Shown here piece after piece: positions 35,746 through 45,403 of a stretch of DNA of 56,448 bases. The stretch comes from Bacteroidia bacterium. Its GTDB lineage: Bacteria > Bacteroidota > Bacteroidia > Bacteroidales > JAPLDU01. The notes beneath the pieces are model-generated. The model worked only from the letters and a program-made list of their open reading frames with translations. It was not told the origin of the DNA and ran no database searches. A program made the translations under genes and the position numbers. Numbering within the stretch: the first letter of the stretch is position 1; every line of letters starts with the position of its first letter. The stretch covers positions 8,907 through 65,354 of the forward strand of contig JAPLDU010000044.1 of the NCBI GenBank assembly GCA_026391255.1, given 5' to 3'.

Positions 35746-37353
35746 TTGTTTAAGTTAGAATCGAGGATCAACACAAAATCAGAGGAATTTCAGCAGAACA
35801 GAAACGAATTCCTCAATCTCCTTGACAAATACAAGGAAATTCACAAAGTAGTAACCCGGGGCGGTTCAGAAAGCACGATCAGAAAACACAAAGAACGTGG
35901 GAAGCTCCTTGCCAGGGAAAGAATTGACAAACTGGTTGATCCTAACACTCCATTTCTTGAGTTATCCCCTTTGGCAGCCTATGATTTATACAATAATGAA
36001 TTTCCTTCGGCTGGAATCGTAACAGGGATCGGGCTGATCCATGGCAGGGAGGCAGTGATTATTGCCAACGATGCGACGGTGAAAGGTGGCACTTACATGC
36101 AATATACCATTAAAAAGCATTTAAGGGCACAGGAAATTGCCATGGAGAACCATCTGCCCTGCGTTTATCTTGTAGATTCGGGAGGTGCATTTTTACCCGA
36201 GCAGGATCGCGTATTTCCCGACCGGGATCATTTCGGGCGATTCTTTTACAACCAGGCAAGGCTATCTGCGATGGGCATTCCCCAGATTTCCATTGTAATG
36301 GGCTCATGTACTGCAGGTGGAGCTTATGTCCCTGCCATGAGCGATGAAGCCATCATCATCAAAAAACAAGGTACTATTTTTCTTGGAGGACCACCACTGG
36401 TGAAGGGAGCAACGGGCGAGATCGTAACTCCTGAGGAGCTCGGCGGTGCTGATGTTCATACTTCCATTTCGGGTGTTGCCGACCATTTTGCAGAAAATGA
36501 CCTTCATTCCATTCAGATTTGCAGGAACATTTTCGAATCAATGGAAAAAAGACAAAAACAACTCCTCGATATTGCTCCCATTGAAGAACCTGGTTACGAC
36601 CCTGAAGAATTGTATGGTATTGCCCCGATGGATTTCCGGAAAATGGTCGACCCCCGCGAAATCATTATGCGGGTTGTAGATGGCAGCAAATTTCATGAAT
36701 TCAAGGAAAGATACGGACCTACCTTAGTTACAGGCTTTGCCCGGATCATGGGTTACCCGGTTGGTATACTGGCGAACAACGGAGTGTTGTTTTCCGAATC
36801 AGCATTAAAAGGCACCCACTTTATCGAACTTTGCACTTCGAGAAAAATTCCGCTGTTATTTCTCCAGAACATAACAGGGTTTATTGTCGGTAAGGATTAT
36901 GAAAGAAAAGGCATTGCCAAGGATGGAGCTAAATTGGTACATGCCGTGGCAAATACAAATGTTCCAAAATTTACAGTCATTTTTGGTGGTTCCTTTGGCG
37001 CAGGGAATTATGGCATGGCTGGCAGGGCATTTGGCCCCAGACTTCTGTTTATGTGGCCTAACGGGAAAATATCCGTTATGGGAGGTATGCAGGCTGCTAC
37101 CGTATTAATCACGGTCAAACAGGATCAGATGAAATTGGATGGTAAAGATATGCCTCCGGAAGATGTCGAGAAGATGCGTAAAAGTATTATCGACAAATAT
37201 GATTTCGAAGGCTCTTCATTTTACAGCACTGCAAGACTCTGGGACGACGGTATTATCGACCCGGTTGATACCCGCAAAGTAATCGCTATGGGAATTGCCA
37301 TGTCGCTTAATAAGCAATATCCGGAAAAACAGGACGGAGTATTCAGAATGTAA
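35746..37353 (+). CDS. Acyl-CoA carboxyltransferase, methylcrotonyl-CoA carboxylase beta-like (12S-like)
   Basis: 535 residues, the usual size for MccB. This subunit moves the carboxyl group from biotin to an acyl-CoA, most likely 3-methylcrotonyl-CoA in leucine breakdown. Seen: [15 protein letters not shown], the N-lobe [13 protein letters not shown] with [22 protein letters not shown] (typical of MCC beta), [29 protein letters not shown], and the C-lobe [28 protein letters not shown] and [17 protein letters not shown]. The start is a TTG (35746); no in-frame ATG lies before the conserved N-terminus. It begins the operon and is followed 17 bases later by the hydratase gene. No biotin carboxylase partner is encoded in the window. 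Confidence 0.93.
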
Positions 37354-37370
37354 TTTAACAGTTTCTTTTT

Positions 37371-38159
37371 ATGATGAATTATCAGACCATTGCATTTGAA
37401 GAAAACAACGGGATAGGAACGGTATCACTTAACCGTCCTGATGTTCACAATGCACTGAATCAGCAGATGATTGCTGAAGTAATTGATTGTTTTACCGCAG
37501 TTAATAAGGAACCCGGTGTCAGGATCGTTGTTTTAAGGGGGAAAGGAAAATCATTCTGTGCCGGAGCCGATCTGAATTATATGAAAGGTATTGCTGGATT
37601 TGGTTTTGAAGAAAATTACCAGGACAGCCTGAATCTGGCTAAATGCTTTTATACTATTTATACCTGTAAAAAACCCACCATTGCTGTTGTTCAGGGGGCA
37701 GCCATCGGAGGAGCAAACGGTTTGCTTGCCTCCTGTGATTTTGTTTTCTGCGCCGATGATACAAAATTTGCATTCAGCGAAGTGAAGCTCGGAATTGCTC
37801 CTGCTACTATTTCACCTTATGTCACAAAGCGAATTGGTGAGTTTGGCTCACGCGACCTGATGCTAACCGGAAGACGTTTTACCGGAAAGGAAGCAGAAAA
37901 TTACCACCTTGTCAATAAATCGCTCCCCGCTGATGAACTGGATGCTTATGTCAATTCAGTCATGGATTCACTGATGTCAAGCGGTCCGGATGCCATGGCA
38001 GCCTGTAAAAACCTGATCTTTGATATTTGCAATAAACTCAGCTTTGAAGAATCACGTGATTATACGGCCAGGCTGATTGCAGAATTAAGAGCATCGGCCG
38101 AAGGACAGGAAGGAATGGCCTCATTCCTCGAAAAACGAAAACCAAATTGGGTCAATTAA
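37371..38159 (+). CDS. Enoyl-CoA hydratase, likely methylglutaconyl-CoA hydratase
   Basis: 262 residues of the crotonase fold. The oxyanion-hole segments are KSFCAGADLNYMKG and AVVQGAAIGGANGLLASCDFVFC. The following EVKLGIAPATISPYVTKRIG contains a Glu expected in hydratases and matches the APATISPYV pattern of methylglutaconyl-CoA hydratases. In the leucine route it would hydrate 3-methylglutaconyl-CoA to HMG-CoA, right between the carboxylation and lyase steps encoded by its neighbours. It is tightly spaced behind the carboxyltransferase gene. Confidence 0.9.
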   Translation: MMNYQTIAFEENNGIGTVSLNRPDVHNALNQQMIAEVIDCFTAVNKEPGVRIVVLRGKGKSFCAGADLNYMKGIAGFGFEENYQDSLNLAKCFYTIYTCKKPTIAVVQGAAIGGANGLLASCDFVFCADDTKFAFSEVKLGIAPATISPYVTKRIGEFGSRDLMLTGRRFTGKEAENYHLVNKSLPADELDAYVNSVMDSLMSSGPDAMAACKNLIFDICNKLSFEESRDYTARLIAELRASAEGQEGMASFLEKRKPNWVN

Positions 38160-38212
38160 TTGTTTATACAATACAACATTCTTTGGCCTGAACCAAAAAG
38201 CATGAATTACAC

Positions 38213-40312
38213 ATGAAAAGACAAATCAAGTTTAGCCTGATATACAGAGATATGTGGCAATCATCCGGGAAATATGTTCCCCGGGTTGACCAGTTGAAGA
38301 AAATCGCACCTGTGATTATTGATATGGGTTGCTTTGCCCGGATTGAAACCAATGGTGGCGCTTTTGAACAGGTGAACCTGCTGTATGGTGAAAATCCCAA
38401 TGTGGCAGTCAGGGAATGGACCAGGCCTTTCAATGAGGCAGGCATTCAGACCCATATGCTTGAAAGGGCGCTGAATGGAATTCGTATGTTCCCCGTTCCT
38501 GCCGATGTGAGAAGGCTGATGTACAAGGTCAAAAAAGCACAGGGGGTGGATATTGCCCGTTCGTTCTGCGGGTTAAATGACCATCGCAACCTTGAGCTGT
38601 CCATAAAGTACGCAAAGGAAGCCGGTATGATCTCACAGGCTGCCTTAAGCATTACCCATTCCAGGGTTCATACGGTTGATTATTATATGGGCGTGGTGGA
38701 TAAAGCAATTGAATACGGTGCCGATGAAATATGCCTGAAAGATATGGCCGGCATAGGCAGGCCTGTTACCCTTGGCAAGCTCGTATTAGCTATTAAAAAG
38801 AAATACCCCGGAATTATAGTCCAGTATCATGGTCATTCGGGTCCTGGTTTTTCAGTTGCTTCCATGCCCATCAGGGAAATGCTTACCGACGCAGGCTTTG
38901 ATGTTCCTGAAATCAATATGAATGCATATATGGAAACCAGGGCGCTGACACAATCCTTTATCGATGACTTCCTTGGCTATTTTATTGATCCAAAGAACAG
39001 GTACGTATCCTCCCTGCTCATCCAGTCAGGCCTTCCGGGTGGTATGATGGGCAGTCTCATGGCCGACCTCAAAGGAGTGCACGATGTAATTAATTCAAGC
39101 CTGAAATCTCAGGGCAAACGTGAATTGAATGCCGATGAATTGCTTGTTGAGTTGTTTAAAGAGGTCTCTTATATCTGGCCCAGGCTGGGTTATCCTCCCC
39201 TCGTTACACCTTTCAGCCAGTACGTGAAAAACGTTGCTTTGCTCAATATTCTTCAGCTGGTAAAAGGCGAAGAAAGATATTCGATGATGGATGGCAATAC
39301 CTGGGATATGATTCTTGGCAAATCAGGCAAGCTGCCCGGCGAACTCGCTCCCGAAATTATTGAACTGGCAAAGATACAGGGCAGGGAATTCTATACGGGT
39401 ATCCCCCAGGACGGATATCCCGATGTGCTCGATAAGTTCAGAAAAGAAATGAACGATAACAACTGGGATACTGGGCCTGATGATGAAGAGCTGTTTGAAT
39501 TTGCCATGCACGAAACACAGTACAGGGACTATAAATCAGGAATAGCAAAAAAAAGATTTGAAGAAGAAATTGAGAAAATGAAAACATCATCAGCAGATAT
39601 TAAAACAATGGTTCCTATGAAAGAAAAACAAACGCCAAACCGGAGTTCCTATTCAAAAGAAAAAGCAACGCCTGCTGAGGCTATGGCTGCATTTATTGTT
39701 TATACACTTACTTCTGCACAAACTGATGATCAAAAATTCACGAAACAGGAACACAATATTTGGAATTCAATAGGTTACTGGAGAAACCTGATGAAAATCA
39801 CCCTCAATTACGAAAACAGGGAACACGATGTTTACCTGAAAACCAGGAATGGAATTACCGAACTTGATTTTAATGGTGAAAAATACCTCGTAAAGCTTGA
39901 ATTCATTAATAAAGGAGAAATTGACGTTAAAATCAGCAATAAGAATATTCATGCAGTAATTGCAAAAATGTCGGATGGTCGTTCAAAGGTACTGATCAAC
40001 GAACAGGAATACATTATGTCAAGGAATGACCTCCTTGACGGTGAAATGGAACAAGTGGCCGAGGATCCCCGGTCGGGAGCAAATATTTCAAATACCTTGC
40101 TGTCACCTATTCCCGGAAGGATATTTAAAATAAACGTAAAAGAAGGGGATTCAGTTAAGAAAGGCGATATAGTACTTGTTGTTGATGCCATGAAGATGGA
40201 AAATAATATTGTCATTAAAAAAGATGCACTGATCAAAAAAATCCACGTTTCTCTGGATGAAATGGTAGAAGGCAATTCAGTCCTGGTGGAAATTGAAGAT
40301 ATCAGAAACTGA
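38213..40312 (+). CDS. 5S/oxaloacetate-decarboxylase-type carboxyltransferase fused to a biotin carrier domain
   Basis: 699 residues. Residues about 1-470 match the pyruvate carboxylase/OadA/transcarboxylase-5S carboxyltransferase: YRDMWQS (Asp13 as metal ligand), EICLKDMAG (Lys176, the carbamylated Lys of the family), YHGHSG (His206 and His208), SGLPGGMMGSL, GYPPLVTPFSQYV and TGPDDEELFEFAM. Residues about 485-605 resemble the BT-type linker domain of acyl-CoA carboxylase alpha chains (NSIGYWRNLMKITLNY...). Residues about 620-699 are a biotinyl domain with VVDAMKMENN (biotin on Lys661). There is no ATP-grasp biotin carboxylase domain. The substrate loops differ from pyruvate carboxylase (RDMWQS for RDAHQS, ETNGGA for EVWGGA). 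With the MccB-like gene upstream, it may act as the oxaloacetate-side and carrier part of a transcarboxylase. No OadB or OadG is nearby. Confidence 0.9.
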   Translation: MKRQIKFSLIYRDMWQSSGKYVPRVDQLKKIAPVIIDMGCFARIETNGGAFEQVNLLYGENPNVAVREWTRPFNEAGIQTHMLERALNGIRMFPVPADVRRLMYKVKKAQGVDIARSFCGLNDHRNLELSIKYAKEAGMISQAALSITHSRVHTVDYYMGVVDKAIEYGADEICLKDMAGIGRPVTLGKLVLAIKKKYPGIIVQYHGHSGPGFSVASMPIREMLTDAGFDVPEINMNAYMETRALTQSFIDDFLGYFIDPKNRYVSSLLIQSGLPGGMMGSLMADLKGVHDVINSSLKSQGKRELNADELLVELFKEVSYIWPRLGYPPLVTPFSQYVKNVALLNILQLVKGEERYSMMDGNTWDMILGKSGKLPGELAPEIIELAKIQGREFYTGIPQDGYPDVLDKFRKEMNDNNWDTGPDDEELFEFAMHETQYRDYKSGIAKKRFEEEIEKMKTSSADIKTMVPMKEKQTPNRSSYSKEKATPAEAMAAFIVYTLTSAQTDDQKFTKQEHNIWNSIGYWRNLMKITLNYENREHDVYLKTRNGITELDFNGEKYLVKLEFINKGEIDVKISNKNIHAVIAKMSDGRSKVLINEQEYIMSRNDLLDGEMEQVAEDPRSGANISNTLLSPIPGRIFKINVKEGDSVKKGDIVLVVDAMKMENNIVIKKDALIKKIHVSLDEMVEGNSVLVEIEDIRN

Positions 40313-40398: not shown

Positions 40399-40600
40399 AA
40401 AAACAAAGAACAACAAACAAGAAATAACAAATCTTAAAATACAAATAACAAATAAATTTCAATCAACAAAATGATAAATTCAAAGTAGTTCGTTTCGTAT
40501 TTAAAATTTTGATATTGTTTATTATTTGTTTTTTGTGATTTGTTTTTTGGAATTTTTTGCCAAAAAGCGCCAAGATTTCAGAAATAAGATACTATATAAT

Positions 40601-41293
40601 ATGCAGAAAGTTGTTAATAATGCTTATGAAGCAATAAAGGGTATTGGCGACAATATGACATTGATGCTTGGGGGCTTTGGATTGTGTGGAATTCCTGAAA
40701 ACACAATTAATGCTCTTTTTGAATCAGGGATAAAAGGATTGACCTGCATTTCAAATAATGCAGGTGTAGACGACTGGGGTCTGGGTCTGTTACTTAGGAA
40801 GCACCAGATTAAGAAAATGATCGCTTCATATGTCGGAGAAAATAAAGAATTTGAAAGACAATTACTTTCAGGCGAACTGGAAGTGGAACTGATCCCGCAG
40901 GGTACCCTGGCAGAAAGGATCAGGGCCGGCGGAGCCGGTATTCCTGCATTCTACGTTCCCGCTGGTTATGGTACAGAAGTACAGGGTGATAAAGAAGTCC
41001 GGGAATTCAATGGAAAAATGCACCTGCTGGAAAAAGCACTGACTGCTGATTTTGCTGTAGTAAAAGCATGGAAGGGCGATACCAAGGGCAATCTCATATA
41101 CAGGAATACAGCATCAAATTTTAATAATATGATGGCCGCTGCGGGAAGAATAACCATTGCTGAGGTCGAAATCCTTGTCCCCGCCGGAGAACTTGACCCG
41201 AACCAGGTGCATACCCAGGGAATTTTTGTAAAGAGAATTTTCCAGGGAACTGATTATAAGAAGAGAATTGAATTTGCAACAACTATATCATAA
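40601..41293 (+). CDS. 3-oxoacid CoA-transferase subunit A
   Basis: 230 residues from [15 protein letters not shown] (40601); an earlier in-frame start lies in repeat-like DNA and adds no conserved residues. The A subunit binds CoA. Seen: [70 protein letters not shown] and [17 protein letters not shown]. It pairs with the B subunit at 41589. In the leucine route it would convert the acetoacetate released by HMG-CoA lyase into acetoacetyl-CoA, using succinyl-CoA or another donor. Confidence 0.94.
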
Positions 41294-41588: not shown

Positions 41589-42251
41589 ATGGCTTTAGAT
41601 AAAAACAGCATTGCAAAAAGGATCGCACAGGAACTTAAGGATGGCTATTATGTAAATCTCGGGATTGGCATTCCCACTCTTGTAGCCAATTATATACCAG
41701 AGGGTATAGAGGTTGTTTTGCATTCCGAAAACGGCCTGCTTGGAATCGGCCCCTTTCCGAGAAAGGAAGACATCGATCCTGACCTTATCAATGCAGGAAA
41801 ACAAACCATTACTGCCATACCTGGCGCTGCCTTTTTTGATTCGGCAGAAAGCTTTGGCATGATTCGTGGCGGACATATTGACCTTACCGTGCTCGGTGCC
41901 TTTGAAGTATCTGAAAAAGGAGATATAGCCAGTTGGAAGGTACCCGGTAAACTGGTCAAAGGAATGGGTGGCGCAATGGACCTTGTTGCTTCTGCAAAGT
42001 ATATCATCGTTGCTATGCAACATGTCGATAAGGAGGGCAATTCAAAACTGCTGAAGGAATGTACATTGCCGCTTACAGGTGTCAGATGTGTAAAAAGGAT
42101 AGTTTCCGACCTTGCTGTGATCGATGTTACCCCGCAAGGATTTAAACTGATGGAAAGGGCACCGGGCATAAGCGTCGATGAAATCAGGGCTGCCACTGAA
42201 GGAAAACTGATCATTGAAGGAGAAATACCTGAAATGAATTTAGGTATATAG
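41589..42251 (+). CDS. 3-oxoacid CoA-transferase subunit B
   Basis: 220 residues. The B subunit carries the catalytic Glu in [16 protein letters not shown] (SENG motif). Other family blocks: [66 protein letters not shown] and [21 protein letters not shown]. It acts with the A subunit to form acetoacetyl-CoA. A heptamer array (TAGTAAG, TCATATC) follows the stop codon and fills the 88-base gap to the next gene. Confidence 0.95.
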
Positions 42252-42339: not shown

Positions 42340-43347
42340 ATGAATTATCCAAAGAAAGTAACCATCGGCGATATTACCGTCAGAGATGGTTTTCAGCATG
42401 AAGAAAATTTCATTCCTACAGATGCCAAACTATGGCTTGCTGAACAGCTTTTACTGGCTGGTTTCAAACATATTGAGACCACAAATCTGGGTAATCCTAT
42501 AGGAATGCCTCAGTTCAAAGATGCTGATGAACTTATGAAGCGCTTGCGTTCAAGTAAAAAGGTCGCTCATCTGATCAAAGATGTTTCGATAACAGCCATT
42601 ACCATCAGGGAAAAGGCTATTGAACGGGCCATTGAAGCCAGAAAAGAGGGCTTTGGACCCGACAGGATATTGCTGATGGTATCAACCAGCGAATCACATC
42701 ATCGGAAAAACTCCGGCCTTTCGCTTGATGAATATTGGAAAATGGCCGAGAAATATATTCCACTGGCACACGATGCCGGGATTAAAGTGAATGGCACTGT
42801 AAGCACTATCTGGGGCTGTCCCATTGAAGGCCCGACCGACATGAAAAAAGCCATAGATTTCTCAAAGCGCTGGTTCACCATTGGCGCCAACGACGTGGAA
42901 CATGCTGATCACGACGGTTCTGCATCTCCTGACCGGGTATACCGTTATTATTCCATGCTTCTTGATGCCATTCCAAGACCTGAAAAGCAGATCGTGCATT
43001 TCCATACAACCCGCGGTTGGGGACTCGCCAATGTTTTGGCAGCACTGCAAGCCGGCATGACCAACTATGAGTCTACCATGGGAGGAATGGGAGGTCAGCC
43101 TGCGAATTTTGTCAGCGGCGTTCCTGTGGCAGGTACAGGATCTTATTATTACAAAGACCCGAATCTGGTAGGCCTTGTTTCAACTGAAGATATGGTGGTG
43201 ATGATGGACGAAATGGGTATCGATACCGGCCTGGATGTCGACATGGTATTGGAAACAGGCCAGATGGTCGAACGGATCGTTGGTCGCCGTCTGCGCTCTG
43301 AAGCAATAAAGAATGGCAGGATACCCAAGACATTAACAGGAAGGTAA
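42340..43347 (+). CDS. HMG-CoA lyase-like (DRE-TIM) protein lacking the catalytic Cys
   Basis: 335 residues of the HMGL-like TIM-barrel superfamily. Metal-site residues are present: ITVRDGFQHEE (Arg15, Asp16) and VHFHTTRGWG (His220, His222). The loop that carries the catalytic Cys in HMG-CoA lyases (GGCP) reads MGGMGGQPANF here, with Gln253. The C-terminal 60 residues (YKDPNLVGLVSTEDMVVMMDEMGIDTGLDVD) resemble the HMG-CoA-lyase end. It may act on another 3-hydroxy-3-methyl acyl-CoA or be a partner of the next gene, which starts two bases after its stop codon and has the Cys. The reaction is not established. Confidence 0.85.
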   Translation: MNYPKKVTIGDITVRDGFQHEENFIPTDAKLWLAEQLLLAGFKHIETTNLGNPIGMPQFKDADELMKRLRSSKKVAHLIKDVSITAITIREKAIERAIEARKEGFGPDRILLMVSTSESHHRKNSGLSLDEYWKMAEKYIPLAHDAGIKVNGTVSTIWGCPIEGPTDMKKAIDFSKRWFTIGANDVEHADHDGSASPDRVYRYYSMLLDAIPRPEKQIVHFHTTRGWGLANVLAALQAGMTNYESTMGGMGGQPANFVSGVPVAGTGSYYYKDPNLVGLVSTEDMVVMMDEMGIDTGLDVDMVLETGQMVERIVGRRLRSEAIKNGRIPKTLTGR

Positions 43348-43349
43348 TC

Positions 43350-44195
43350 ATGATTATTGTTGAATCACCCAGAGAAGCTTTCCAGGCCTGGAAAAAATAC
43401 ATTACTTCGGAGAAAAAAACCAGATACATCAATGCCTTGCTGAAAGCAGGCTTTCATACCGTGGAAGCAGGCAGTATTGTCTCTCCGAAAGTAATCCCCC
43501 AGATGGCCGATACTTTTGATGTACTTTCCTCACTCGACAAACAGGAGAATTCGTCAGAGGTTATGGTCCTTGTAGTCAATAAAAAAGGAGCAGAACTGGC
43601 ATCCTCTTTAAGCCAGGTAAACAGCCTCGCCTTTCCGTTTTCCTTTTCTCCCATCTTTGTGAAAAAAAATCTGAATGCCACCATCACAGAAGCCCATAAA
43701 ATACTCGACGATATTCTTGATAGCAGCACCAAAACAGGCAAAAAGGCAGTGATATATATTTCCATGGCTTTCGGTAATCCTTACGGTGATGAATGGAGCA
43801 TTGACCTTCTAATGCACTGGATTGAACTGTTGGTAAACAAAGGTATTGATACCATCCCATTGTCTAATGTATCGGTCAATATAAGTCCTGATCTTATCAG
43901 GTCAGTATTCAGCCTTGTAACCAGTCATTTCCCGAAGGTAGAATTTGGTCTTCACCTGCATACCTCATCACTCGACTACTACGAAAAAGTGGAAGCAGCA
44001 TATAATAATGGTTGCCGTCGTTTCGACACAGTGATTAACGGCATGGGAGGCTGCCCAATGACAGGATCAGCATATATGGCTAACCTGAAAACACAGGATT
44101 TTATTTCTTTCCTTCAACAGGAAAACATCAGCCACAACCTGCATTCCGACAAGTTAGAGCAAGCCATCACCATCGCTTCAGAAGTATTTAACTAA
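43350..44195 (+). CDS. Hydroxymethylglutaryl-CoA lyase (short Bacteroidota type)
   Basis: 281 residues. HMG-CoA lyase splits HMG-CoA to acetyl-CoA and acetoacetate. Seen: GFHTVEAGSIVSPKVIPQMADT, LAFPFSFSPIF, YISMAFGNPYGDEW, FGLHLHTSS (His202, His204), CRRFDTVINGMGGCPM (Cys235). The N-terminal motif reads ESPREAFQAW; in relatives it is PRDAMQ, so the expected metal-binding Asp is Glu9. LSNVSVNISPD replaces the usual LSDTVGVATPE. The catalytic Cys is intact, so activity is plausible but the metal site is altered. It is translationally close to the Cys-less paralog upstream. Confidence 0.87.
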   Translation: MIIVESPREAFQAWKKYITSEKKTRYINALLKAGFHTVEAGSIVSPKVIPQMADTFDVLSSLDKQENSSEVMVLVVNKKGAELASSLSQVNSLAFPFSFSPIFVKKNLNATITEAHKILDDILDSSTKTGKKAVIYISMAFGNPYGDEWSIDLLMHWIELLVNKGIDTIPLSNVSVNISPDLIRSVFSLVTSHFPKVEFGLHLHTSSLDYYEKVEAAYNNGCRRFDTVINGMGGCPMTGSAYMANLKTQDFISFLQQENISHNLHSDKLEQAITIASEVFN

Positions 44196-44257: not shown

Positions 44258-45403
44258 ATGTACCTTACAGAAGAACACAATATGATTCGCAAAACGGTTC
44301 GGGATTTTGCCGAAAGGGAAATTAAACCTGTAGCCCGTGAACTGGACGAAAAAGCTGAGTTTTCCGTCGACCTGACACAGAAAATGGGGGAACTGGGATT
44401 ATTTGGCATACGTACTCCCCAGGAATTCGGCGGAATGGAAATGGATACGTTAGCTTATGTAATAGCAGTAGAGGAACTTGCACGAGTTGACAGCTCTCAG
44501 GCCGCTACGGTTGCCGCTCAGACATCCCTGGGAACCGGGCCTATCATGAGTTATGGAAACAAGGAACAAAAGGCAAAATACCTAACACTACTGTCATCCG
44601 GTAAGGCATTATGGGCATTCGGACTCACAGAACCCGAAGCCGGATCAGATTCCCGGAATACCAAGACCAACGCTCATCTTGAAGATGGTCATTGGATTAT
44701 CAATGGTTCCAAGATATTTATAACAAATGGAGCTTCTTCGATGAACATCGGAGCCACAGTTCAGGTGGTAACAGGTAATCATAACGGGAAAAAAGAATTC
44801 TCAACGATACTGGTGGATGCCGATACACCAGGTTTTAAAAGGGTTCCGATGCATAATAAAATGATGTGGCGCGCCTCAGATACTGCAGAATTGTTTTTCC
44901 AGGACTGCCGTGTACCTGAATCAAACCTGCTTGGAAAGAGAGGTGAAGGTTCGCGTATCATGCTCAGCACTTTGGACAGCGGAAGGCTTGCAATTGCGGC
45001 CATGGGGCTTGGTCTTGCCCAGGGAGCCTTCGAAATGGCGCTTAATTATGCCAGAAACAGAAAACAGTTCGGTAAACCCATTGCACAGTTCCAGATCAAC
45101 TCTTTTAAACTGGCCGATATGGCAACTAAGATAGAACTGGCCAGGAACCTGCTATATAAGGGTGCATGGCTCAAATCCAACAACCAGCCGTTTGAAAAAG
45201 AAGCTGCAATGGCAAAGTTATATTGCTCCGAAATAGCCAGGGAAGTAGCCGACGAAGCCGTCCAGATCCATGGTGGATATGGATTAATGAAAGAATATGA
45301 CATCGAAAGATTCTACCGCGATCAGCGTCTGCTGCAAATCGGCGAAGGAACATCAGAAATACAAAGGCTCGTGATATCAAGGTACATCGGTTGCTATGAC
45401 TGA
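44258..45403 (+). CDS. Acyl-CoA dehydrogenase, short/branched-chain type
   Basis: 381 residues, normal length. The FAD flavoprotein oxidises acyl-CoA to 2-enoyl-CoA. Seen: MIRKTVRDFAEREIKPVA, WAFGLTEPEAGSDSRNTKT (FAD/substrate), KIFITNGASS, RKQFGKPIAQFQ, VQIHGGYGLMKEYDIERFYRD and the end LLQIGEGTSEIQRLVISRYIG. The Glu in GEGTSE is the catalytic base position of the short- and short/branched-chain group; isovaleryl-CoA dehydrogenases typically lack it there. Context points to isovaleryl-CoA or 2-methyl-branched acyl-CoA, but sequence favours the general branched or butyryl type. It ends 38 bases from the convergent pyruvate kinase gene. Confidence 0.93.
   Translation: MYLTEEHNMIRKTVRDFAEREIKPVARELDEKAEFSVDLTQKMGELGLFGIRTPQEFGGMEMDTLAYVIAVEELARVDSSQAATVAAQTSLGTGPIMSYGNKEQKAKYLTLLSSGKALWAFGLTEPEAGSDSRNTKTNAHLEDGHWIINGSKIFITNGASSMNIGATVQVVTGNHNGKKEFSTILVDADTPGFKRVPMHNKMMWRASDTAELFFQDCRVPESNLLGKRGEGSRIMLSTLDSGRLAIAAMGLGLAQGAFEMALNYARNRKQFGKPIAQFQINSFKLADMATKIELARNLLYKGAWLKSNNQPFEKEAAMAKLYCSEIAREVADEAVQIHGGYGLMKEYDIERFYRDQRLLQIGEGTSEIQRLVISRYIGCYD

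What the first reader, a model, noticed from the sequence alone, without database searches (positions are those of the whole stretch)
35746..40312. Possible methylcrotonyl-CoA transcarboxylase: 12S-like subunit plus a 5S-biotin-carrier fusion, with no biotin carboxylase
Seen: an MccB-type acyl-CoA carboxyltransferase gene, then a hydratase gene, then a 699-residue protein with an OadA/5S-type carboxyltransferase (Asp13, Lys176, His206, His208), a BT-like linker and a biotin domain (Lys661). No ATP-grasp biotin carboxylase is encoded in the window, and no OadB/OadG sodium pump subunit. Known: propionibacterial methylmalonyl-CoA carboxytransferase is built from 12S (acyl-CoA side), 5S (oxaloacetate/pyruvate side) and 1.3S (biotin carrier). 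Inference: here 5S and 1.3S are fused and the partner is an MccB-like subunit, so methylcrotonyl-CoA could be carboxylated with oxaloacetate as donor, giving pyruvate and needing no direct ATP. I know of no described leucine pathway of this kind.
Basis: partly seen in the sequence, partly recalled or inferred. Interest (0 to 1): 0.88.

Follow-up and report, generated by a model that had tools for sequence, protein, structure and literature searches.

The report
Leucine-pathway carboxylase missing its ATP-using part
In a group of uncultured bacteria (Bacteroidales), the ATP-driven half of the leucine-degrading carboxylase seems to have been replaced by a part that looks able to take its carboxyl group from a keto acid such as oxaloacetate, so that this step may cost no ATP directly; genome comparisons support this well, no laboratory test exists, and the copy in this particular assembly carries a damaging gap.

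Summary
In detail: window 35746-40312 encodes an MccB-type carboxyltransferase, a hydratase, and a 699-aa protein (here FUS) with a 5S/OadA-type carboxyltransferase, a BT-like linker and a biotin domain, inside a leucine/isovalerate gene cluster. FUS looks like MccA whose ATP-grasp biotin carboxylase (BC) domain is replaced by a 5S/OadA-type domain: it stands where MccA stands in liu operons, its model shows a BT-like helix plus eight strands, and it has a hook motif W-x5-W-R in 19 of 19 FUS and 4 of 4 MccA. Five of 32 fusion genomes (91-99% complete) have no detectable BC; three of these also lack OadB. The other 27, this one included, have one BC, beside BCCP and usually PccB, never MccB. 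Relatives include OadG-OadA-OadB operons, so this domain type belongs with carboxybiotin chemistry. Caveats: donor, direction and complex are inferred; BT homology is weak by sequence alone; and this window's FUS alone has an 84-bp in-frame deletion removing a barrel strand and active-site loop (assembly error or recent loss). A new variant of transcarboxylase; nine aimed literature searches listed no description.

The parts
35746..37353 (+). MccB-type acyl-CoA carboxyltransferase (535 aa)
   Evidence: Carboxyl_trans 492 bits; five best PDB relatives 680-720 bits, MCC beta / AccD1 type; 12S 261 bits
37371..38159 (+). enoyl-CoA hydratase, probably methylglutaconyl-CoA hydratase (262 aa)
   Evidence: best NCBIfam model gamma-carboxygeranoyl-CoA hydratase, 258 bits, under its cut-off of 426; same place as in liu operons
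38213..40312 (+). FUS, 699 aa: 5S/OadA-type carboxyltransferase + PYC_OADA + BT-like linker + biotin domain; occupies the MccA position
38213..39559 (+). 5S/OadA-type carboxyltransferase and PYC_OADA region of FUS (D13, K176, H206, H208)
   Evidence: model of relative L208: VIA Z 40.0 to 5S 1rqh, 40.9 to OadA 2nx9
38864..38869 (+). junction of an 84-bp (28-codon) in-frame deletion relative to the other FUS; the missing part holds a barrel strand and active-site loop
39671..40027 (+). BT-like domain (one helix, hook, eight strands in the model of relative L208; limits carried over by alignment)
   Evidence: topology; profile match running on into PCC/MCC alpha; Pfam ACCA_BT weakly in 6 of 19; no support from sequence when the biotin domain is cut off
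39761..39784 (+). hook motif W-x5-W-R shared with MccA
40103..40294 (+). biotin carrier domain, biotinyl Lys661 (codon 40193-40195)
40526..41293 (+). 3-oxoacid CoA-transferase subunit A
   Evidence: TIGR02429 248 bits over cut-off 128.5
41589..42251 (+). 3-oxoacid CoA-transferase subunit B
   Evidence: TIGR02428 333 bits over cut-off 243.6
42340..43347 (+). HMG-CoA lyase-like protein 1 (335 aa)
   Evidence: PRK05692 188 bits, under its cut-off of 246
43350..44195 (+). HMG-CoA lyase-like protein 2 (281 aa, diverged)
   Evidence: PRK05692 171 bits, under its cut-off of 246
44258..45403 (+). acyl-CoA dehydrogenase, probably isovaleryl-CoA dehydrogenase
   Evidence: role inferred from the cluster

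Best explanation
MccB and FUS form a methylcrotonyl-CoA transcarboxylase that needs no biotin carboxylase. The 5S/OadA-type domain of FUS takes the carboxyl group of a 2-oxo acid, most likely oxaloacetate, onto the biotin of its own C-terminal domain; the BT-like domain with its MCC-type hook docks FUS on MccB; MccB transfers the carboxyl to 3-methylcrotonyl-CoA, giving 3-methylglutaconyl-CoA and pyruvate. Hydratase, HMG-CoA lyase and the 3-oxoacid CoA-transferase then finish leucine/isovalerate oxidation. Shown here by computation: domain make-up, conserved catalytic residues, operon position, hook motif, conservation of the gene set, no detectable BC in some genomes. Inferred: donor, direction, physical complex. 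The copy in this assembly may be defective.
For: MccB is in 15 of 17 named fusion loci (L067 starts at the hydratase; L062 has no MccB or hydratase in the 10 kb upstream held), hydratase 16 of 17, acyl-CoA dehydrogenase 16 of 17, AccC 0 of 17; 0 of 62 short-form loci have MccB (some contigs are short). Proteobacterial liu operons fetched as control: MccB-hydratase-MccA-HMG-CoA lyase in 4 of 4, so FUS stands where MccA stands. Hook W-x5-W-R: 19 of 19 FUS, 4 of 4 MccA, 0 of 67 short forms, 0 of 26 PCC-type BCCP N-terminal pieces, 6 of 1127 other ORFs; hook-to-biotin-Lys distance 142-148 in FUS, 139-144 in MccA. In MCC and GCC a hook Trp is buried in the beta subunit (PMC4673880, passages). BC absent by PF02785 and PF00289 in 5 of 32 fusion genomes: G482 98%, G406 99%, G538 96%, G427 95%, G676 91% complete; of these G482, G406 and G676 also lack OadB. 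G482 has the whole cluster, G538 has it with other genes between, G676 most of it across a contig break. In the other 27 there is one BC; in the 26 of these loci read besides the window's, it lies beside BCCP in 26 and PccB in 24, MccB in none. Carboxyltransferase residues 1-218 under strong constraint: pN 0.055-0.079, pS 0.79-0.88; BT-biotin part pN 0.32-0.33. Metal ligands D/K/H/H and Arg12, Gln16, Arg85 kept. OadB-linked relatives share the active-site variant. OadB is in 0 of 27 fusion loci and not in the window; where a fusion genome has OadB it is on another contig in 17 of 17.
Against: The pocket differs from PC, PycB, OadA and 5S: His to Trp15, Tyr to Met92, Asp to Cys119 in most, so the donor may not be oxaloacetate. 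The clade lies on a very long branch. BT homology is weak by sequence: nothing significant in the PDB once the biotin domain is cut off; hhalign to MccA E 0.006 but probability 6%. 27 of 32 fusion genomes have a BC that could serve in trans. Incompleteness alone would remove BC from about 2 of 32 (my sum of 1 minus completeness, figures); among the 18 at least 95% complete 0.5 are expected and 4 seen. In G427 no MccB or hydratase lies in the 4.3 kb upstream of FUS, and in G538 4.2 kb of other ORFs separate them; MccB was not searched elsewhere in G427 and G406. L062 has no MccB nearby. The window's own FUS lacks 28 barrel residues. No assay or complex prediction was run.
Confidence: 0.72

Rival explanations
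1. Shared-BC model: the genome's single AccC carboxylates the biotin of FUS in trans, MccB uses it, and the 5S-like domain is a side branch (two-subunit pyruvate carboxylase-like) or regulatory.
For: 27 of 32 fusion genomes, this one included, have one BC. Two-subunit PC shows that a separate BC subunit can work with a CT-biotin subunit (PMC5059739, passages).
Against: 5 of 32 fusion genomes show no BC. In the 26 other BC loci read, BC sits with a BCCP, usually with PccB, never with MccB. The 5S-like domain is the best conserved part of FUS.
Confidence: 0.13
2. Reverse direction: methylglutaconyl-CoA + pyruvate to methylcrotonyl-CoA + oxaloacetate, as part of isovaleryl-CoA formation from HMG-CoA, with the acyl-CoA dehydrogenase acting as a reductase.
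For: Transcarboxylation is reversible (recalled); the dehydrogenase scores best against an acryloyl-CoA reductase model, 422 bits, under its cut-off of 640.
Against: HMG-CoA lyase-like and 3-oxoacid CoA-transferase genes fit oxidation; the core order is that of liu operons, known as catabolic (recalled).
Confidence: 0.08
3. Na+-pump partner: FUS works with an OadB-type membrane subunit, as its Parabacteroides-type relatives seem to, either decarboxylating or, driven by the Na+ gradient, carboxylating biotin.
For: Relatives L140, L142 and L246 lie in OadG-alpha-OadB operons; OadB occurs in 17 of 32 fusion genomes.
Against: 15 of 32 fusion genomes, this one included, have no OadB match; OadB is in 0 of 27 fusion loci and not in the window, and on another contig than FUS in 17 of 17 genomes that have it.
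Confidence: 0.04
4. The window's FUS is a decaying or wrongly assembled gene, so that the family reading may not apply to this one genome (this can be true together with the best explanation for the family).
For: 84-bp in-frame deletion across a conserved barrel strand and active-site loop, unique among 19 FUS.
Against: The rest of the ORF is open and under constraint like its relatives, and the neighbouring genes are open. This fits an assembly error or a very recent event and says nothing against the family.
Confidence: 0.35

Closest known systems
Methylmalonyl-CoA carboxytransferase (transcarboxylase, EC 2.1.3.1) of Propionibacterium: 12S, 5S, 1.3S
   Same: Acyl-CoA carboxyltransferase + 2-oxoacid-type carboxyltransferase + biotin carrier; for the carboxyltransferase part alone 5S scores best (143 bits; OadA 133; PycB 125 - PycB's whole chain scores 180 because of its biotin domain).
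   Different: Acyl-CoA side is MCC/AccD1-type, not 12S (680-720 against 261 bits); 5S-like part and carrier are one chain with a BT-like domain between; separate clade on a long branch.
3-Methylcrotonyl-CoA carboxylase (MCC, EC 6.4.1.4), liu/mcc operon
   Same: MccB, hydratase, HMG-CoA lyase and acyl-CoA dehydrogenase genes; BT-like + biotin half with the hook motif; same place in the operon.
   Different: No ATP-grasp BC domain; a 5S/OadA-type domain in its stead.
Na+-translocating oxaloacetate decarboxylase alpha (OadA)
   Same: Fold (Z 40.9 to 2nx9); some close relatives lie with OadG and OadB.
   Different: FUS has a BT-like domain and MccB as neighbour; no OadB match in 15 of 32 fusion genomes.
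Two-subunit pyruvate carboxylase beta (PycB, 5ks8)
   Same: Same domain order, carboxyltransferase then BT-like linker then BCCP (Z 42.9, rmsd 9.6 over 527).
   Different: No PycA/AccC gene in the fusion loci; an acyl-CoA carboxyltransferase gene instead.

Membership tests
Transcarboxylase (EC 2.1.3.1 type) | 12S-type acyl-CoA carboxyltransferase subunit | tested here: not met
   Acyl-CoA subunit is MCC/AccD1-type: 680-720 bits against 261 for 12S
Transcarboxylase (EC 2.1.3.1 type) | 2-oxoacid carboxyltransferase with Asp/Lys/His/His metal site | tested here: met
   D13, K176, H206, H208 aligned with 5S, OadA, PycB, PC; this window's copy lacks a nearby strand
Transcarboxylase (EC 2.1.3.1 type) | biotin carrier with MKM motif | tested here: met
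   19 of 19 FUS
Transcarboxylase (EC 2.1.3.1 type) | no biotin carboxylase required | tested here: inconclusive
   BC not found in 5 of 32 fusion genomes, present in 27; need not tested biochemically
Transcarboxylase (EC 2.1.3.1 type) | ATP-independent carboxyl transfer from or to oxaloacetate | not testable with these tools
   needs an assay
MCC (EC 6.4.1.4) | MccB | tested here: met
   by sequence family, substrate not tested
MCC (EC 6.4.1.4) | alpha subunit with ATP-grasp BC domain | tested here: not met
   FUS has no BC domain; the genome's only BC is with BCCP and PccB on another contig
MCC (EC 6.4.1.4) | BT domain with hook Trp docking on MccB | tested here: inconclusive
   motif and topology present; sequence match weak; no complex predicted
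Na+-translocating oxaloacetate decarboxylase | OadB partner | tested here: not met
   No PF03977 match in this genome nor in 14 other fusion genomes of 32; 0 of 27 fusion loci
Two-subunit pyruvate carboxylase | dedicated PycA (BC) partner beside PycB | tested here: not met
   0 of 17 named fusion loci have AccC

The most novel reading that the evidence does not exclude
A lineage of Bacteroidales has swapped the ATP-grasp biotin carboxylase domain of MccA for a keto-acid-driven 5S/OadA-type domain, making a transcarboxylase for the branched acceptor methylcrotonyl-CoA, a kind not known to me; leucine oxidation there is charged from oxaloacetate (which PEP carboxykinase could refill while making ATP; that gene was not looked for) instead of ATP, and some members have dispensed with biotin carboxylase altogether.
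Probability: 0.57. Interest if true: 0.88.

Novelty: new variant of a known kind. Interest (0 to 1): 0.8.

Why it matters
It would be a leucine-degradation step without direct ATP cost, useful for anaerobes on thin energy budgets; it would show that the BC module of acyl-CoA carboxylases can be exchanged for a keto-acid-fed module while the docking part is kept, a natural precedent for ATP-free carboxylases. It also bears on a puzzle met here: 150 of 393 sampled genomes of this order, among them a single-contig genome (G394), show no biotin carboxylase by PF02785. And it warns that annotators who see MccB beside a biotin protein may wrongly call a complete MCC.

Tried and rejected
Plain 12S/5S/1.3S transcarboxylase: rejected as a family name because the acyl-CoA subunit is MCC/AccD1-type. 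Membership in 5S proper: the tree puts FUS and its Bacteroidales relatives apart from 5S, OadA, PycB and PC; the root is midpoint and several reference rows are long, so their own order is not used. BT homology by sequence alone failed (only unrelated hits at E 0.08 and above); hhalign to MccA E 0.006 but probability 6%; hhalign to the N-terminal part of PCC-operon BCCPs, the genome's own included, probability 88%, E 3.5e-6 over 64 columns. The first structure model was poor (pLDDT 67, pTM 0.48); a deeper alignment gave 83 and 0.67. That alignment held one odd row, the genome's BCCP (22% identity). Both models are of relative L208, not of the window's protein. A one-residue test of MccB against GCC substrate choice (Phe191 of PMC4673880) was tried and is not used, because I could not fix the numbering of the equivalent residue. 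No near relative was held to settle the deletion (no other genome of family f1 among 60).

Rows dropped: in the order-wide count, 11 single weak matches (E about 1e-31 to 1e-36: G410 G441 G457 G460 G498 G597 G640 G654 G734 G742 G779) were set aside as not of the family without being read. In the 26 BC loci, L144 and L164 show no PccB in the stretch held and L144 has only a partial BCCP hit. L104 (contig starts inside FUS) is not among the 17. G676's fusion was counted from two contig-edge halves. The long/short split of the 131 genomes was made by me from match ranges and frame lengths.

Association of short forms with missing BC: 57 of 99 short-form-only genomes against 88 of 262 without any member lack BC (Fisher p 4e-5), but genomes of one lineage are not independent, so this is a lead only.

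Literature: ten searches. Nine were aimed at prior descriptions, one at the BT domain. No title or abstract start in the listings describes a methylcrotonyl-CoA transcarboxylase; only open-licence PMC papers are held. Passages, not whole texts, were read of PMC3199775, PMC8865466, PMC7382037 (isovalerate by 'carboxylation + lyase', 'transcarboxylation for propionate'), PMC4673880, PMC5059739 and PMC12631010 (an uncharacterised 'putative transcarboxylase' in Proteiniphilum; its sequence was not examined).
Full report
WHAT IS THERE. The window holds a compact leucine/isovalerate cluster on the + strand: MccB (35746-37353), an enoyl-CoA hydratase (37371-38159), the 699-aa protein here called FUS (38213-40312), CoA-transferase A and B, two HMG-CoA lyase-like proteins and an acyl-CoA dehydrogenase (to 45403). 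FUS contains a divergent HMGL-type barrel, PYC_OADA and a biotin domain. MccB scores 680-720 bits against the five best PDB chains, two of them deposited as MCC beta (8j4z, 3u9r); the top chain is deposited as a propionyl-CoA carboxylase beta subunit (9tps), the second as AccD1; transcarboxylase 12S scores 261.

GENOME CONTEXT. The genome (4.08 Mb, 161 contigs, 97.5% complete) has one biotin carboxylase by PF02785, at C120, in an AccC-BCCP-PccB-type operon, no OadB match, and FUS as its only PYC_OADA match. A further CT on C6 (MmdA-like, split over two frames) has a 104-aa biotin protein beside it.

FAMILY. Matches at E 1e-30 or better were found in 142 of 393 genomes of the order, of which I set aside 11 weak single ones, and, at 1e-40, in 5 of 395 genomes drawn from the phylum, all five of this order. 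Two forms exist. The long form (FUS) is in 32 genomes of the order sample, this one included; the short form (about 580-640 aa) alone in 99. A maximum-likelihood tree of 55 rows puts all 44 Bacteroidales rows apart from 5S, OadA, PycB and PC (100/100, branch 5.4), with the 19 FUS rows as one clade (100/94) inside the short forms. L140 and L142 (genomes G238, G347) and Parabacteroides distasonis L246 stand in OadG-alpha-OadB operons; L140 and L142 keep an AMKTY biotin-type motif. Of 67 short-form loci only these two have OadB next to the gene; L100, L108 and L111 have one some 4-6 kb away, beside PccB-type and biotin genes on the other strand. The biotin-type lysine motif is missing from 16 of the 18 short C-termini displayed.

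FUS AND MccB GO TOGETHER. In 17 named fusion loci with flanks up to 10 kb, MccB is present in 15, hydratase in 16, acyl-CoA dehydrogenase in 16, AccC in none; in 62 short-form loci MccB is in none (some contigs are short). The two without MccB are L067, whose contig begins at the hydratase, and L062, which has neither gene in the 10 kb upstream held. As a control, four plasmid-borne MccB loci of Proteobacteria read MccB-hydratase-MccA-HMG-CoA lyase. FUS thus stands where MccA stands.

MccA WITHOUT ITS BC DOMAIN. The C-terminal half of FUS in the model of relative L208 (mean pLDDT 83, pTM 0.67) is a helix (515-529), a loop, and eight strands (555-633), then the biotin domain. The GCC paper describes the BT domain as one helix in an eight-stranded barrel with a 'hook' between helix and first strand; a hook Trp, mostly conserved in MCC and GCC, is buried in the beta subunit (PMC4673880, passages). 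FUS has W-x5-W-R in that loop in 19 of 19 sequences; 4 of 4 MccA have the same motif; 0 of 67 short forms, 0 of 26 N-terminal pieces of PCC-type BCCP and 6 of 1127 other stop-to-stop ORFs of at least 200 aa do. The distance from the motif to the biotinyl lysine is 142-148 residues in FUS and 139-144 in MccA. By sequence the BT match is weak: a profile match of the biotin domain that runs on into the BT region of PCC and MCC alpha, Pfam ACCA_BT in 6 of 19 at best E 0.0016, nothing against the PDB when the biotin domain is cut off, hhalign to MccA E 0.006 at probability 6%. Which of the two Trp corresponds to the buried one is not settled.

CARBOXYLTRANSFERASE HALF. The model of L208 matches PycB 5ks8 (Z 42.9, rmsd 9.6, 527 aligned), OadA 2nx9 (Z 40.9, 2.4, 442) and 5S 1rqh (Z 40.0, 2.8, 448). 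Arg12, Asp13, Gln16, Arg85, Lys176, His206 and His208 are kept in the rows compared; three positions differ from the known enzymes (His to Trp15, Tyr to Met92, Asp to Cys119, the last in most). So the chemistry of making carboxybiotin from a 2-oxo acid is likely, but the donor could be another acid than oxaloacetate. The OadB-linked relatives share these variants, which puts this active-site type in a carboxybiotin setting. The domain is the best conserved part of FUS: pN 0.055-0.079 against pS 0.79-0.88 over residues 1-218, 0.11-0.14 after the deletion site, while the BT-biotin part has pN 0.32-0.33.

IS A BC NEEDED? Of 32 fusion genomes 27 have exactly one BC match and 5 have none: G482 (98% complete), G406 (99%), G538 (96%), G427 (95%), G676 (91%); PF00289 is missing in the same five and present in the six BC-bearing genomes tried. 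G538 and G427 are of one genus. G482 keeps the whole cluster; G538 keeps it with 4.2 kb of other ORFs between hydratase and FUS and further ones after it; G676 has MccB, hydratase, both lyases, FUS and dehydrogenase across a contig break; the G406 contig shows hydratase and FUS only; the 6.7-kb G427 contig shows FUS only, without MccB or hydratase in 4.3 kb upstream. MccB was not searched elsewhere in G406 and G427. G482, G406 and G676 also lack OadB. From the completeness figures I expect about two BC misses among all 32 and about 0.5 among the 18 at least 95% complete, where four are seen; the five misses are not in the least complete genomes. In the 26 other BC loci read (about 2.3-3.3 kb each), AccC lies beside BCCP in 26 and PccB in 24, MccB in none. 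OadB is in 0 of 27 fusion loci read and not in the window, and in the 17 fusion genomes that have it, it is on another contig.

THE DELETION. Against 18 other FUS and the 26 short forms displayed, the window's FUS lacks 28 residues after Met218 (nt 38866/38867). They hold a barrel strand and the loop after it, nearly invariant elsewhere. The reading frame continues, and the rest of the domain is as constrained as in relatives. It is either an assembly error or a recent loss; no closer genome was held. The mechanism argued here is therefore for the family, and for this organism only if the segment is really present.

HOW IT MOST LIKELY WORKS. Oxaloacetate (or another 2-oxo acid) + FUS-biotin gives pyruvate + FUS-carboxybiotin; the carrier swings to MccB; methylcrotonyl-CoA gives methylglutaconyl-CoA; hydratase and lyase give acetyl-CoA and acetoacetate, which the CoA-transferase activates. 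Shown by computation: parts, conservation, genome distribution. Inferred: donor, direction, complex. From recalled knowledge, oxaloacetate decarboxylation is exergonic enough to drive such a transfer, as in propionibacterial transcarboxylase.

COMPARISON. It works like a transcarboxylase, but it is not a member of the 12S/5S/1.3S family by its acyl-CoA subunit (tested, not met), nor an MCC, for want of BC (tested, not met), nor an OAD, for want of OadB (tested, not met). I class it as a new variant of the transcarboxylase kind. Nine aimed literature searches listed no description (see Tried and rejected); the library holds only open-licence papers.

Noticed in passing
L073-L136 (short forms), e.g. 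L073:10001-11740; L245:3998-5776: 5S/OadA-like proteins of Bacteroidales without MccB, and in most loci without OadB, with a C-terminal biotin-like domain whose lysine motif is mostly lost (16 of 18 displayed); annotated 'hypothetical protein' in one Bacteroides finegoldii record. Genomes with only this form lack BC more often (57 of 99 against 88 of 262).
   Followed up: partly
L246:4686-8161; L140:7059-10525; L142:8044-11509: OadG - divergent OadA-like - OadB operons in Parabacteroides and relatives; the alpha subunit of L246 is annotated only as 'biotin/lipoyl-containing protein'.
   Followed up: partly
order sample: 150 of 393 Bacteroidales genomes, including single-contig G394, have no biotin carboxylase by PF02785 (G394 also none by PF00289); how they make malonyl-CoA is unclear.
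   Followed up: no
window 42340-44195: Two HMG-CoA lyase-like genes side by side; in relatives the first is about 76-88% identical to the window's, the second only about 40-46%, so the second may have another role.
   Followed up: no
L138:6367-8601: MmdA-like carboxyltransferase split into two overlapping frames beside a 104-aa biotin protein: frameshift or assembly error.
   Followed up: no
L242:3138-6449, L243:2958-6431, L244:3171-6455, L249:2747-6446: Plasmid-borne sets of BC, biotin protein(s) and a 5S-like carboxyltransferase without an acyl-CoA carboxyltransferase annotated beside them (Pseudomonas putida YC-AE1, Rhodococcus oxybenzonivorans, Sphingomonas bisphenolicum, Sulfitobacter dubius); substrate unknown.
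   Followed up: no
   Followed up: no
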